From Acidobacteriota bacterium (GTDB lineage Bacteria > Acidobacteriota > Terriglobia > UBA7540): a DNA stretch of 64,000 nucleotides. Position 1 is the first letter of the stretch. Each line of letters opens with the position of its first letter. The notes beneath the pieces were generated by a model that was not told the origin of the DNA, did no database searches, and saw only the letters and a list, made by a program, of their open reading frames with translations. Location: positions 1 to 64,000 of the forward strand of contig SCRD01000020.1 of assembly GCA_004298155.1 (NCBI GenBank). The letters run 5' to 3'. The position numbers and the translations under genes are program-made. Shown here piece by piece: positions 15,697-53,060 of the stretch.

Positions 15697-16380
15697 TTAC
15701 TCCGCATTGGTAAAGTGGATGACCCCTTGCGAATCCACATAACGGACGATAGGCATAACCCGCGCGGCCGGCGTTGCTGCTGCCTCAGAGCCTGTGCTCT
15801 TCGAGCTGTAAATGCGCGTTATCGCCCGCACGTAATGCTCAGTTTCAGGGATGGCCGGTATGCCGCCGGAGCGGATCACACGCTCCTCCCCCGCATTATA
15901 GGCGGCCAGCGAGAGCGGCAAATTGCCCCTGAAAAGGTGCAGAAGATATTTCAGGTAGCTGACTCCTCCCTGAATGTTCTGCCCGGGATCGAAAGGATTC
16001 TGCACGCCAAATCGCTGCGCCGTTGCCGGAATCAACTGCATCAGCCCCATGGCGCCTTTAGAAGAAACAGCTGAAGGATCGTAGTTGGATTCAACCCGGA
16101 TCATGGCGTGGACCAGTTTAGGGTCCACCTGATAATGGCTGGAGACGCGATCAATGAGGGAGTCAATTCCAGCGGGGCTGGCGAGTAGAGATCTCTCCTG
16201 CGAGAAATCGGGTCCAGTGCTTTCAGATGTTCCGTTGACGAAAACGATCTGGCCATTCTGGCCGGTGACGGTGGCAATTTGTCCTGCCTCGAGGCAAGGC
16301 AAACCCCGCAGGAAACCAGCGAGGAATAAACCGCAGGTTATAGCAACGGCAGGCGTTTTGGACCTTAACCAGATTCGCAT
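15697..16380 (-). CDS. Exported lytic transglycosylase (SLT family)
   Basis: A 227-residue peptidoglycan lytic transglycosylase. A signal peptide follows the chosen ATG at 16380 (AVAITCGLFLAGFLRGLPC), with GGAGG about 10 bases upstream; an earlier ATG at 16422 would add 14 residues. The SLT domain carries the catalytic glutamate in MIRVESNYDPSAVSSKGAMG, the GLMQLIPATAQRFGV motif and the NLPLSLAAYNAGEERV motif. Short segments before and after it (GQNGQIVFVNG; RYVDSQGVIHFTNAE) look like DUF4124-type strands. It precedes the AMIN amidase on the same strand, so the two cell-wall hydrolases may be co-expressed. Confidence 0.88.
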   Translation of the reverse strand: MRIWLRSKTPAVAITCGLFLAGFLRGLPCLEAGQIATVTGQNGQIVFVNGTSESTGPDFSQERSLLASPAGIDSLIDRVSSHYQVDPKLVHAMIRVESNYDPSAVSSKGAMGLMQLIPATAQRFGVQNPFDPGQNIQGGVSYLKYLLHLFRGNLPLSLAAYNAGEERVIRSGGIPAIPETEHYVRAITRIYSSKSTGSEAAATPAARVMPIVRYVDSQGVIHFTNAE

Positions 16381-16679
16381 AGAGATCCAGCCTCCACTCA
16401 ATCGTGGAAGAACGGAACTCATCCCCCCGCTATCCGGCTTGAACCAGCCCGGGTTTTTGCTCGCCCTTCATCTTGCGGGGACGGCCTGGCACTCCACCCG
16501 ACACACTGACGGGCAGAACCGTCCAAAACGATTGAATTATAACGTGTTTTTGCCATGTCAACAAGAAAAAACAGGACTTTCCGCGTTTTCTTCAGGAGCT
16601 ACCTCTGCCGCAACCCTTTTCCAAAATCCAGGCTGCAACCGGTTTTCAAGAGGGTGGAACCTGTACCGGAAGGGCTACA

Positions 16680-16958
16680 TTGAAGATGATATTTCTCCGG
16701 TTCGTTTTTTTGACGCTCTAATGTTTTCAACGAGATCGGTAGCTTCGTTTCCGGTTCGTTTTTTCAGCAGCTACGTGTTTTCAACAACTTCTCCGCTTCG
16801 TTTTCCGGTTCGTTCCGGTTCGTTTTTAGGCCCGATCCTTTGTTTTCAACAACCTCTCCGGTTCGTTTTTCAAAAAACGAATTTTTTTGTCCCATTTGTC
16901 CCAAAACCAGCCGCCCACAAGCTCTGTAAAGACTACTATGCTAGGCCACTCTTGTCAA
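16680..16958 (-). repeat. Dispersed repeat element, copy A, with internal repeat units and promoter
   Basis: Part of a 658-bp gene-free gap between alaS and the transglycosylase gene. Read on the minus strand it starts with TTGACA (16953-16958), a 17-bp spacer and TAGTCT (16930-16935). It then contains a hairpin TTCGTTTTTTGAAAAACGAA after an A-run, and repeating units of 50-60 nt built on AAAAACGAACCGGA followed by GTTGTTGAAAACA (about three full units and a partial one). A second copy at 43200-43456 has the same order of units at roughly 90% identity over about 150 bp. No protein frame is conserved. Copy A ends about 300 bp before the transglycosylase start, so it could be a long 5' leader or a separate RNA. 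Confidence 0.8.
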
Positions 16959-40460: not shown

Positions 40461-42854
40461 TTACCCTGAAGTGCTGGTGGACGCGGGAACCTGCGCCGGG
40501 ACGGGGTCCTTCTCCAGCGCCAGGTTAATGGCTTCGCGCATCGTCTTCACGTAACGCAGTTTAACGCCTTCCAGCATGTTGTCCTGCAGGTCTTCTTTAA
40601 CATTGGGTTCATTTTCTGCAGGCAGCAGCACTTCGGTGACGCCGGCGCGTCTTGCAGCCAGCACTTTTTCCTTGATGCCGCCGACAGGCAGTACCTGTCC
40701 GCTGAGGGTGATTTCACCCGTCATGGCCAGGCGCGGGCGAATGGGACGATGCGTCAGAGCAGAAACCAGCGCCGACGCCATGGTGATGCCCGCGGAAGGG
40801 CCGTCTTTCGGAATGGCTCCGGCGGGAACGTGGATGTGAATGTCCTGGCTCTGGAAGAAGTCCGGATCGACGCCGTAGTCATCCGCGTGCGCGCGGACCC
40901 AGGCCAGGGCTGCCTGCATGGATTCCTGCATTACTTTGCCCACGTGGCCGGTCATGGCGAAATTCTTGCCCCCCTTCATTGAAGTGACTTCGACAAAGAG
41001 GATGTCGCCCCCCGTGGGCGTCCAGGCCAACCCCACCGCCACGCCCGGCTGGCGAGTGCGCTCAATCAGTTCCGTTTCGATGCGGAATTTCTGGACGCCG
41101 AGAAAATCTCCGAGGATTTCAGGCGTAACGATCAATTTTTCCGGGTGCCCTTCGGCAATCTTGCGAGCTTGTTTACGGCAGACGGTGGCAATCTCGCGCT
41201 CCAGGTTGCGGACGCCAGCCTCGCGCGTGTAATGGCGGCTGATGGCTGAAATGGCTTCGCGGGTAAATTCGATCTGTTCACCCAGCTTGATGCCGTGCTC
41301 CTCAGTCTGCTTGGGAATCAGGTGCCGGATGGCAATTTCGATTTTTTCTTCCTCCGTATAACCCTGGAGTTCCAAGAGCTCCATCCGGTCGAGCAGCGGA
41401 GGAGGAATTGTGTCCAGCACATTGGCCGTGCAAATAAACAGCACCTTTGAAAGGTCAAACTGCACGTCGAGATAGTTGTCGCGGAAGTGCGAGTTCTGTT
41501 CCGGGTCGAGGACTTCCAGCAGGGCGGAAGAGGGATCGCCGCGGAAGTCGCGCCCGATCTTGTCCACTTCGTCCAGCATGAAGACTGGATCTCGCGTTTC
41601 GGCGCGGCGGATGCCCTGCATGATCTGGCCGGGAAGCGCGCCGATATAGGTCCGGCGGTGTCCGCGGATCTCCGCTTCGTCATGAATTCCGCCAAGCGAC
41701 ATGCGAATAAACTTCCTGTCGAGCGCCTTGGCAATCGACTTGCCAAGCGACGTCTTGCCTACTCCGGGCGGCCCCACAAAGCAGAGCAGAGGCCCCTTCA
41801 TCTCGGGCTTGAGTTGCAGGACGGACAGGTAATCAAGGATCCTTTCCTTGATTTTTTCCAGATCGTAATGGTCGGTCTCCAGCACCGTCTTGGCCTTGTT
41901 GACATCCACTTTCAGTTCGCTGACTTTCTTCCACGGCAGCACCACCAGCCAGTCAAGGTAAGTGCGCGTGACGTGATAGTCTGCAGCCGCGGGCGACATC
42001 TTAGACAGGCGGTTCAGCTCGCGCAGCGCCTCCTTGCGGGCCTCTTCCGTCATGCCCGCAGCTTCGATTTTCCTGCGCAACTCCTCAATTTCCTGGTGCT
42101 CGTCGGCCTCGCCCAGCTCTTTCTGGATGGCTTTCATCTGCTCGCGCAGGTAATATTCGCGCTGGCTCTGCGTCACCTGGTCCTGCACGTCAGACTGAAT
42201 CTTGGAGCGGAGCTGCAACACCTCAACTTCGCGGGCCAGCAGATGGTTCAAGCGGTCCAGCCGCGCTTTAAGGTCCAGGCTCTCCAGCAATTCCTGTTTT
42301 TCAGTGCTCGAGAGCGAGGGGAGATTGGCGGCGATAAAATCTGCCAGGCGGCCGGGATCATCGATGTTCATCACCACGGTTTGCAGATCGTCGGAAAGCG
42401 TGGGAGAAAGCTGCACGGCCTGCTGGAAGAGCGTAGAAACACTTCGCACCAGCGCATCAAAGTCGGCTTTCTTGTCGTCAGGAACAACGTCCGGAAGTGC
42501 TTTGACCTTTGCCCGGATGTACGGCTCCATCTGGAGGACTTCTTCCAGTGCAATCCGTTGCAGCCCTTCGACGAAGATAAAAAGACTCTGCGTGGGAAGC
42601 TTGATGATTTTGTGGACAAATGCCACCGTGCCGATCTGATAGAGATCGGTGGGCTGAGGCGAGTCCACGCGCGGGTCCCGCTGTGCGATCACCCCGATGA
42701 ACTTTTCGCCTTCGGGCAGAGAATTGATCAGTTCCAGCGAGCTTTCCCGGCCCACTGTCAGCGGCAGAATGGCATTTGGAAACAGGACAGTGTCCCGAAC
42801 CGGCAAAATGGCCAGATTTTCAAAATCGGCGGTCTTCTTGATTTTTTCGTTCAT
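40461..42854 (-). CDS. lon: ATP-dependent protease Lon
   Basis: A 797-residue LonA protease. N-terminal substrate domain ([20 protein letters not shown]), coiled coil ([20 protein letters not shown]), AAA+ core with Walker [15 protein letters not shown] and Walker [13 protein letters not shown], and the serine-lysine protease domain with the catalytic serine in [14 protein letters not shown] and lysine in [14 protein letters not shown]. It degrades damaged and regulatory proteins. ATG 42854 starts [18 protein letters not shown] repeat element with a promoter on this strand lies about 350 bp upstream (43200-43456). Confidence 0.96.
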
Positions 42855-43199
42855 CTTCAGACATCCCCGTGCACACGAAATTGGGCGCTGCTCTTAATTC
42901 CGCGTTTGCATTCTATCAAAAGCGTCTCGGTTGCCAACATTTTATCACGCGGGAATTCAGTAGAGGGATCACAAGACCCGGCGCCCGAAGAATCGATTGA
43001 AGGACGCCAGCGAAAACCTCTTGTTGTTTGCAGAGCCCCTTTAATCTTTTGATGCTGCCCTCGGGGAAAAGGTTCACGGGGCGGGTGCGCGTTTGTGCAG
43101 GTTTGGGATCCCGGCAGAGCTCAGGTTGTGCAGAGAACCTGGAATGGCGGATTAGGGGCTAGATTCCTGATGCGATTAGCCTCCGGCCCGTCTTTCTGG
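42855..43199. other. lon upstream region, nothing identified
   Basis: About 345 bp between the lon start and repeat element copy B. I find no gene and no clear heat-shock inverted repeat. If transcription starts at the element, this is part of a long lon leader. Confidence 0.45.
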
Positions 43200-43456
43200 C
43201 TTTCCTTTATTTTCAACATCATGGACAGCTTCGTTTCCGGTTCGTTTTTCCCGCGGCTACGTGTTTTCAACGACTTCTCCGCTTCGTTTTCAGGTTCGTT
43301 CCGGTTCGTTTTTCAGGCCCGATCCTGTGTTTTCAATAACTTCTCCGGTTCGTTTTTCAAAAAACGAATTTTTTTGTCCCATTCGTCTCATTAGTCCCAC
43401 AAATTACTGCTCTCAGGCACTGAAAGGAGACTACCATACTAGCCCACTCAAGTCAA
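43200..43456 (-). repeat. Dispersed repeat element, copy B, with internal repeat units and promoter
   Basis: The second copy of the element at 16680-16958, in the same orientation. On the minus strand it opens with TTGACT (43451-43456), a 17-bp spacer and TAGTCT (43428-43433). Then come the hairpin TTCGTTTTTTGAAAAACGAA and three units with AAAAACGAACCGGA plus GTTGTTGAAAACA-like parts (variants GTTATTGAAAACA and GTCGTTGAAAACA). Differences from copy A are scattered single bases and small indels; the promoter boxes and the units are kept. It lies upstream of lon. The 470 bp beyond it, up to superoxide dismutase, hold no gene I can support. Confidence 0.8.
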
Positions 43457-52904: not shown

Positions 52905-53060
52905 TAGCATAGAAATGTTCTCCGAGCCTCCGGGAGCTAAAGAGCATCCAACAATCCAAGCCCCGATGGCCGGCAGGGTGTGCGGAGAAATCCGGGCGCC
53001 TCCCGTGTTTGGAAAGGGGAACAGGCCTACGCCGAACACGGGTGGGCATTTTTGTTTTTG
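52905..53060 (+). ncRNA. Candidate molybdenum-cofactor (Moco) riboswitch before moaA
   Basis: The 5' leader of moaA holds a structured stretch. TTCTCCG (52918-52924) pairs with CGGAGAA (52983-52989), enclosing GCCTCCGGGAGC and GATGGCCGGCAGGGTGTG. A second stem, CCCGTGTT (53002-53009) with AACACGGG (53035-53042), encloses GGAAAGGGGAACAGGCCTACG, which resembles the conserved core I remember for Moco RNAs. It is followed by GGGCATTTTTGTTTTTG, so the second stem could act as a terminator. Position before a cofactor-synthesis gene supports the call. I have not aligned it to the Rfam model. Confidence 0.68.

What the first reader, a model, noticed from the sequence alone, without database searches (positions are those of the whole stretch)
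16680..16958. Dispersed non-coding element with internal 50-60 bp repeat units (copy A)
Two distant copies (other at 43200-43456) share unit order, a hairpin with A/T-rich arms, and no conserved reading frame. Units combine AAAAACGAACCGGA with GTTGTTGAAAACA. It is neither a tRNA, CRISPR, IS nor a riboswitch that I recognise. Same orientation and similar distance to the next gene suggest a function, such as an RNA leader or small RNA family.
Basis: seen in the sequence. Interest (0 to 1): 0.75.

Follow-up and report, generated by a model that had tools for sequence, protein, structure and literature searches.

The report
Promoter-bearing remnants of unnamed gene family
The repeat is one of about 40 scattered, promoter-carrying, non-coding copies in this soil acidobacterium of what was originally the 3' end of an unstudied, multi-copy gene family; it is real and evolves oddly, but the evidence points to a MITE-like gene remnant rather than a new regulatory RNA, although a role for its RNA is not excluded.

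Summary
Copies A and B are two of about 39 in the genome. Nearly every complete copy has a strong sigma70 promoter (TTGAC-N17/18-TAGYCT) in front (window copies: minus strand), 2-3 units of AACGAA(C/G)C-N5/6-GTTRTTGAAAAYA, and often a GGCTAG/CTAGCC end. The motif occurs in about half of the genomes of one Acidobacteriota family (up to 75 per genome, reversed-motif control 0) and is intergenic. No conserved RNA structure was found. About a third of copies point at the 3' end of the next gene, so this is not a dedicated leader. Origin: in four genera the same array sits at or just after the stop codon of an unnamed multi-copy gene (NAxxSTGPRTxxGK...NALKHG proteins; no Pfam, NCBIfam, PHROG, PADLOC or PDB match). 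Some copies are internal-deletion derivatives of that gene. In other families the motif is still in-frame C-terminal coding sequence, NEP/NEA (6 of 6). Sites are shared between sister species, but element sequence follows the genome, not the site. Best reading: ORF-less, promoter-bearing derivatives of this gene family; RNA function untested.

The parts
16953..16958 (-). copy A, -35 box TTGACA
   Evidence: sequence; TTGAC-N17/18-TAGYCT in nearly all complete copies; the 16S rRNA promoter of this genome reads TTGACA-N17-TAGACT
16930..16935 (-). copy A, -10 box TAGTCT; predicted transcription start near 16922
   Evidence: sequence, 17-nt spacing; inference for the start
16862..16888 (-). copy A, A-tract/T-tract hairpin before unit 1 (corresponds to the last codons of the intact gene in L252)
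   Evidence: sequence; (stop codon of the ORF lies in this stretch in copy L056)
16841..16867 (-). copy A, unit 1: AACGAACC-N6-GTTGTTGAAAACA
16776..16803 (-). copy A, unit 2: AACGAAGC-N6-GTTGTTGAAAACA (65 nt from unit 1)
16722..16749 (-). copy A, unit 3: AACGAAGC-N-CGTTGAAAACA (54 nt from unit 2)
16673..16678 (-). copy A, 3' motif GTAGCC
   Evidence: 3' GGCTAG/CTAGCC/GTAGCC/GGCTAC in 46/74 copies vs 11/222 control windows
43451..43456 (-). copy B, -35 box TTGACT
   Evidence: conserved at the same site in two sister species
43428..43433 (-). copy B, -10 box TAGTCT
43208..43354 (-). copy B, three units (motifs at 43328-43340, 43262-43274, 43208-43220)
43158..43163 (-). copy B, 3' motif CTAGCC(CC), conserved upstream of lon in three species
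15697..16422 (-). gene downstream of copy A (lytic transglycosylase SLT; ORF as listed, true start may be further in), preceded by a conserved promoter-like stretch at about 16536-16561
40461..42854 (-). gene downstream of copy B (Lon protease)

Best explanation
The element is an ORF-less derivative of an uncharacterised, multi-copy acidobacterial gene family (called 'STGP' here after its NAxxSTGPRTxxGK...NALKHG signature). The family's unit is gene body followed by a 3' array of AACGAA(C/G)C...GTTRTTGAAAACA units; the unit motif most likely began as the C-terminal coding tail (NEP/NEA...LLKT). In the window's genus the array has lost coding constraint, and about 40 copies per genome keep a strong promoter plus the array without the gene body. 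Shown: the array at the 3' end of intact genes in several genera, internal-deletion intermediates, in-phase NEP/NEA coding of the first half of the motif in other families, promoters in front of the arrays, purely intergenic placement, and sites shared between sister species with genome-specific element sequence. Inferred: that copies arise by duplication or gene conversion of the deleted form (MITE-like, possibly helped in trans by the STGP protein), and that each produces an unstructured non-coding RNA of roughly 250-350 nt whose effect on the host is minor or incidental.
For: Array at or just after the stop of intact STGP ORFs: G000 L056 (motifs +19 and +85 nt after the stop), G001, G002, G016, G026 and G031. 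In 30 best-hit loci 15 have a TTGAAAAYA-type motif near or after the stop. In 20 further gene or fragment loci 9 have it on the sense strand vs 1 on the antisense strand. Deletion derivatives: L054 and L061 share 662 bp at 94.7% and keep about the first 14 and last 16 codons of the L056 gene plus the array; L068 keeps the C-terminal end. G034 L192 is an N-terminal fragment followed by the array. In families f3/f5/f6/f7 AACGAA[CG]C is enriched at the 3' end of these ORFs, 1.25/kb vs 0.05/kb, and in phase as NEP/NEA in 6 of 6 in-ORF cases. 32 of 39 family genomes have STGP matches, up to 36, many of them N-terminal fragments; family f5 often has 12 or more. No coding constraint in the genus's arrays. 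22 of 39 sites are shared with the sister species. Flank orthologs rank first in 17/22, array core in 0/22.
Against: The two window copies keep no recognisable STGP coding remnant, only the array and the short stretch in front of it. Intact STGP genes in the genus lack the TTGAC promoter within 350 nt of the open frame, so the promoter in copies A and B was gained or comes from another lineage of the gene. No long terminal inverted repeats and no clear target-site duplications were found, so mobility is not demonstrated. In f1 genera outside the window's genus the motif inside ORFs is in mixed phases. Long-term persistence at the same sites and a promoter in nearly every copy could mean the copies are kept for a function.
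Confidence: 0.66

Rival explanations
1. A dedicated, multi-copy small-RNA (or RNA-sponge) family: each locus is an independent sRNA gene with a strong promoter whose unstructured repeats titrate an RNA-binding protein or another RNA.
For: Promoter in nearly all complete copies. In other genera, promoter upstream on the sense strand in 29/78 loci vs 1-5 in three control positions. Repeats conserved at nucleotide level over a whole family without coding constraint in the window's genus. Sites persist between species.
Against: No conserved structure or covariation. The same array is the 3' end of protein-coding genes. Copy numbers vary from 0 to 75 between relatives. The GGA in the genus's units, a CsrA-type site, is absent in other genera.
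Confidence: 0.17
2. A cis-acting 5' leader or promoter module that controls the downstream genes as a regulon.
For: Excess of co-directional downstream genes: 26 vs 11 and 47 vs 26. Both window copies face a co-directional gene (SLT, lon). The site upstream of lon is kept in three species.
Against: About a third of copies are convergent with the next gene. Downstream genes share no obvious function (GuaB, GlyA, Lon, PyrC, RuvC, FolP, MnmG and others, most names read by eye from the sequences). Distances are long (median 316 nt). The gene after copy A has its own conserved promoter-like sequence.
Confidence: 0.08
3. A DNA-level element: binding or curvature sites for a nucleoid protein or for the STGP protein (chromosome organisation, REP/BIME-like), transcription being incidental.
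For: Unit spacing changes in steps of about 11 bp (54/55, 65/66, 76/77). A-tracts are roughly phased with the units (sequence). Always intergenic.
Against: The 11-nt steps are equally explained by slippage of the 11-nt AACGAACCGGA repeat. Motif orientation is fixed relative to the promoter wherever one is found, which a DNA site does not need.
Confidence: 0.09

Closest known systems
MITEs / internally deleted non-autonomous IS derivatives
   Same: Short, intergenic, dispersed, ORF-less derivatives of a gene-bearing unit, with visible deletion intermediates
   Different: No long terminal inverted repeats or target-site duplications found; the parental protein is not a known transposase; copies carry their own strong promoter and sit at conserved sites
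Pneumococcal BOX elements (PMC3049150)
   Same: Intergenic, modular, variable number of internal units, many copies per genome, sometimes transcribed, ORFs created by the module
   Different: BOX is predicted to fold into stem-loops and is over-represented between convergent genes; here no conserved structure, a slight excess upstream of genes, and an origin traceable to the 3' end of a gene family
REP/REPIN elements (own knowledge)
   Same: Dispersed intergenic repeats; REPIN-like hairpins even sit directly upstream of several copies in this genome
   Different: The element itself has no REP palindrome
Multi-copy small RNAs / CsrB-type sponge RNAs (own knowledge)
   Same: Several short repeated motifs behind a promoter on a presumably non-coding RNA
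   Different: No hairpin-presented binding motif; the GGA is not conserved between genera

Membership tests
3' module of STGP genes (proposed origin) | array located at the 3' end of STGP ORFs in more than one genus | tested here: met
3' module of STGP genes (proposed origin) | intermediates with the gene body deleted | tested here: met
   L054, L061, L068, G034 L192
3' module of STGP genes (proposed origin) | motif in phase with the ORF (NEP/NEA) where it is still coding | tested here: met
   6 of 6 in other families; mixed phases in f1 outside the genus
3' module of STGP genes (proposed origin) | STGP coding remnant inside the two window copies themselves | tested here: not met
   only the last-codon/A-tract region matches, weakly
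MITE | no ORF, derived from a gene-bearing unit | tested here: met
MITE | terminal inverted repeats | tested here: not met
   best inverted match between flanks of four intact gene loci is 10 nt ungapped, or a weak gapped one
MITE | target-site duplication | tested here: inconclusive
   none seen at duplicate boundaries; no clean empty site compared
MITE | known transposase recognising the ends | tested here: not met
   STGP protein: no significant Pfam, NCBIfam, PHROG, PADLOC or PDB sequence match
BOX-type repeat | strong conserved RNA stem-loop | tested here: not met
   RNAalifold about -5.5 and -5.2 kcal/mol only, -1.9 for both species together; single-copy MFE z -0.05 to -1.4
Riboswitch / cis leader | always upstream of a co-directional gene | tested here: not met
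   26 vs 11 and 47 vs 26
Riboswitch / known structured RNA | Rfam match or covarying structure | tested here: not met
Small RNA family | own promoter | tested here: met
   (sequence match only)
Small RNA family | discrete transcript / regulatory effect | not testable with these tools
   no expression data

The most novel reading that the evidence does not exclude
STGP units are a previously undescribed class of mobile or conversion-prone genetic element in Acidobacteriota: an orphan all-helical protein recognises its own repeat array (as DNA or as the RNA's 3' end) and spreads or homogenises promoter-array copies at fixed chromosomal sites, which would explain sites shared between species with genome-specific element sequence.
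Probability: 0.2. Interest if true: 0.8.

Novelty: new variant of a known kind. Interest (0 to 1): 0.5.

Why it matters
It links a conspicuous non-coding repeat to an abundant but unannotated protein family (a dozen or more matches per genome in many acidobacterial genomes). It gives a testable model of how a gene's 3' end became a dispersed promoter-carrying repeat. If the STGP protein acts on its array, this would be a new type of bacterial interspersed element; if not, it explains a class of repeats and contig breaks in these genomes.

Tried and rejected
(1) Conserved RNA fold of the whole element and a hairpin per unit: weak or no better than shuffles; pair statistics show no stem pattern; long stems exist in single genera (G016, G006) but do not generalise. 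(2) boxA/Nus antitermination motif: the rRNA boxA-like sequence here is GCTCTTTGACAA, unlike GTTRTTGAAAACA. (3) CsrA sponge: the GGA is absent from the motif in other genera. (4) Phage, plasmid or viral origin: no match. (5) Present-day coding of the array in this genus: rejected by substitution pattern, although stop codons are rare in two frames, which is an effect of the motif itself. (6) Structure of the STGP protein: all-helical model (pLDDT 79.7, pTM 0.50), but Foldseek has no hit below E 0.1 and the best VIA-align Z of 7.8 is within the helical-bundle background, so no function can be read. (7) Motif outside the class: background level. (8) Papers on acidobacterial dispersed RNAs or concerted evolution of bacterial ncRNAs: nothing relevant found.

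Full report
WHAT IS THERE. The window is G000:C20:1-64000 of a 5.2-Mb acidobacterial genome (other holders of the motif are Acidobacteriota MAGs, one labelled gp13). The reported element (A, 16680-16958) and its partner (B, 43181-43456) are confirmed. A DNA search of the genome finds 43 matches, about 39 distinct copies, in both orientations, with E-values down to 1e-86 for copies other than A itself. In RNA sense (the window's minus strand) nearly every complete copy starts with a promoter, gcgAATTTGCTTGACa-N17/18-TAGYCT, followed by a leader of variable length, an A-tract/T-tract stretch, two to three units of AACGAA(C/G)C-N5/6-GTTRTTGAAAAYA spaced mostly 54/55 or 65/66 nt, and often a GGCTAG/CTAGCC/GTAGCC/GGCTAC motif. 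The genome's 16S rRNA promoter reads TTGACA-N17-TAGACT (by eye), so the element promoter is of the strong housekeeping type.

DISTRIBUTION. The motif AACGAA-N6-10-TTRYTGAAAAYA is in 24 of 299 genomes of the class, 21 of them in the window's family (up to 75 sites per genome); the same pattern read backwards gives zero everywhere. Outside the class a looser motif is at background. All 78 loci examined outside this genome and G001 are intergenic by a rough gene call. A TTGAC-N15-20-TANNNT promoter lies within 330 nt upstream on the sense strand in 29/78, against 5, 1 and 2 in the three control placements. The downstream gene is co-directional in 26 vs 11 (this genome) and 47 vs 26 (other genomes): a mild bias, not a rule.

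STRUCTURE. No conserved secondary structure was found: alifold energies are weak, single-copy folds are near random, and stem tests per unit are negative; there is no Rfam match.

EVOLUTION. In the sister species G001 (about 41 matches) 22 of 39 sites carry a copy next to the same flanking genes; the site upstream of lon carries one in all three species of the genus, the G001 copy having lost units 2 and 3. Yet within the element orthologs are no more alike than random pairs: orthologs rank first in 0/22 for the array core and 2/16 for the promoter, but 17/22 for the flank 150-400 nt downstream, and copies cluster by genome with genome-specific signatures. Saturation alone does not explain the genome-specific signatures, so duplication or gene conversion within genomes is inferred.

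ORIGIN. Comparing copies within the genome exposed the parent. Copy L056 is preceded by an intact 310-codon ORF (VEKTND...NAQKSTGPRSEAGKRRAALNALKYG...) whose stop codon lies in the element's A/T stretch; L054 and L061 have the same upstream region and the first codons fused to the last codons, the body being deleted. The same gene family, followed by the same array at or just after the stop codon, is found in G001, G002, G016, G026 and G031. Of 30 best-hit loci 15 have a motif of this type near or after the stop, and of 20 further loci 9 on the sense strand vs 1 on the antisense strand. The gene family is multi-copy and fragmented (32 of 39 family genomes; up to 36 matches, many N-terminal only) and occurs in large numbers in another family of the class. 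In families f3/f5/f6/f7 AACGAA[CG]C is about 25 times enriched at the 3' end of these ORFs and, when inside the ORF, always in phase as NEP/NEA (6/6). In the window's genus the array has no coding constraint. The unit motif is therefore best read as the former C-terminal coding tail (NEP/NEA..LLKT), multiplied and set free as a non-coding 3' module.

WHAT IT DOES. Shown: promoter sequence, array, sites, origin. Inferred: an unstructured transcript of about 250-350 nt; dispersal or homogenisation as ORF-less copies, possibly helped by the STGP protein. The protein has no significant match in Pfam, NCBIfam, PHROGs, PADLOC or PDB sequences; the model is all-helical with confident parts but no informative structural match. 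I commit to 'promoter-bearing, ORF-less derivatives of the STGP gene family, MITE-like in behaviour, effect on the host minor or incidental' at 0.66, with an sRNA family (0.17), a DNA-site role (0.09) and a cis leader (0.08) as rivals.

RELATION TO KNOWN THINGS. It works most like a MITE or BOX-type interspersed repeat but fails their defining tests (no long inverted repeats found, no strong fold; PMC3049150, for BOX and MITE criteria), so it is not filed as a member of either.

Noticed in passing
L252:1501-2430 (G000:C12:404945-405874) and relatives L254-L257: Uncharacterised protein family NAxxSTGPRTxxGKxRxxxNALKHG, multi-copy in many class genomes, absent from Pfam/NCBIfam/PHROGs; a candidate for family definition.
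   Followed up: partly
L034, L041, L045, L047, L053, L057 about 160 nt upstream of the hit: REPIN-like pair of inverted hairpins starting with GTAG (GTAGCCACGGTCAG...CTGACCGTGG / CCACGGACAG...TGTCCGTGGCTACC) directly upstream of the element promoter in several copies.
   Followed up: partly
L252, L254-L257, upstream of the ORF: A conserved 5' non-coding module (TTAACCYATTGAT...AAAATTTATCGTCCCATNCGTCCCANACGTC) precedes intact STGP genes in three genera; its reverse complement resembles the GGGACAAATGAGACGAATGGGAC leader of the ORF-less copies.
   Followed up: partly
G000:C13 (from 1), C15 (from 3), C18 end, C22 end; G001 C27, C52, C58 starts: Several contig ends lie inside this element, i.e. 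it breaks assemblies.
   Followed up: no
window 52908-53035 (+): Molybdenum/tungsten cofactor riboswitch (RF01055, 70 bits).
   Followed up: no
G000:C13:42890-48500 (L198, L199): The only 16S rRNA gene found appears not to be followed directly by 23S, suggesting unlinked rRNA genes; not checked further.
   Followed up: no
G016 loci L096, L175, L195, L216, L217: In one genus units carry a long stem (GAAGCC-A-CTAGGTT ... AACCTAG-C-GGCTTC, perfect in L195) around the ATTGAAAACA loop, absent elsewhere.
   Followed up: partly
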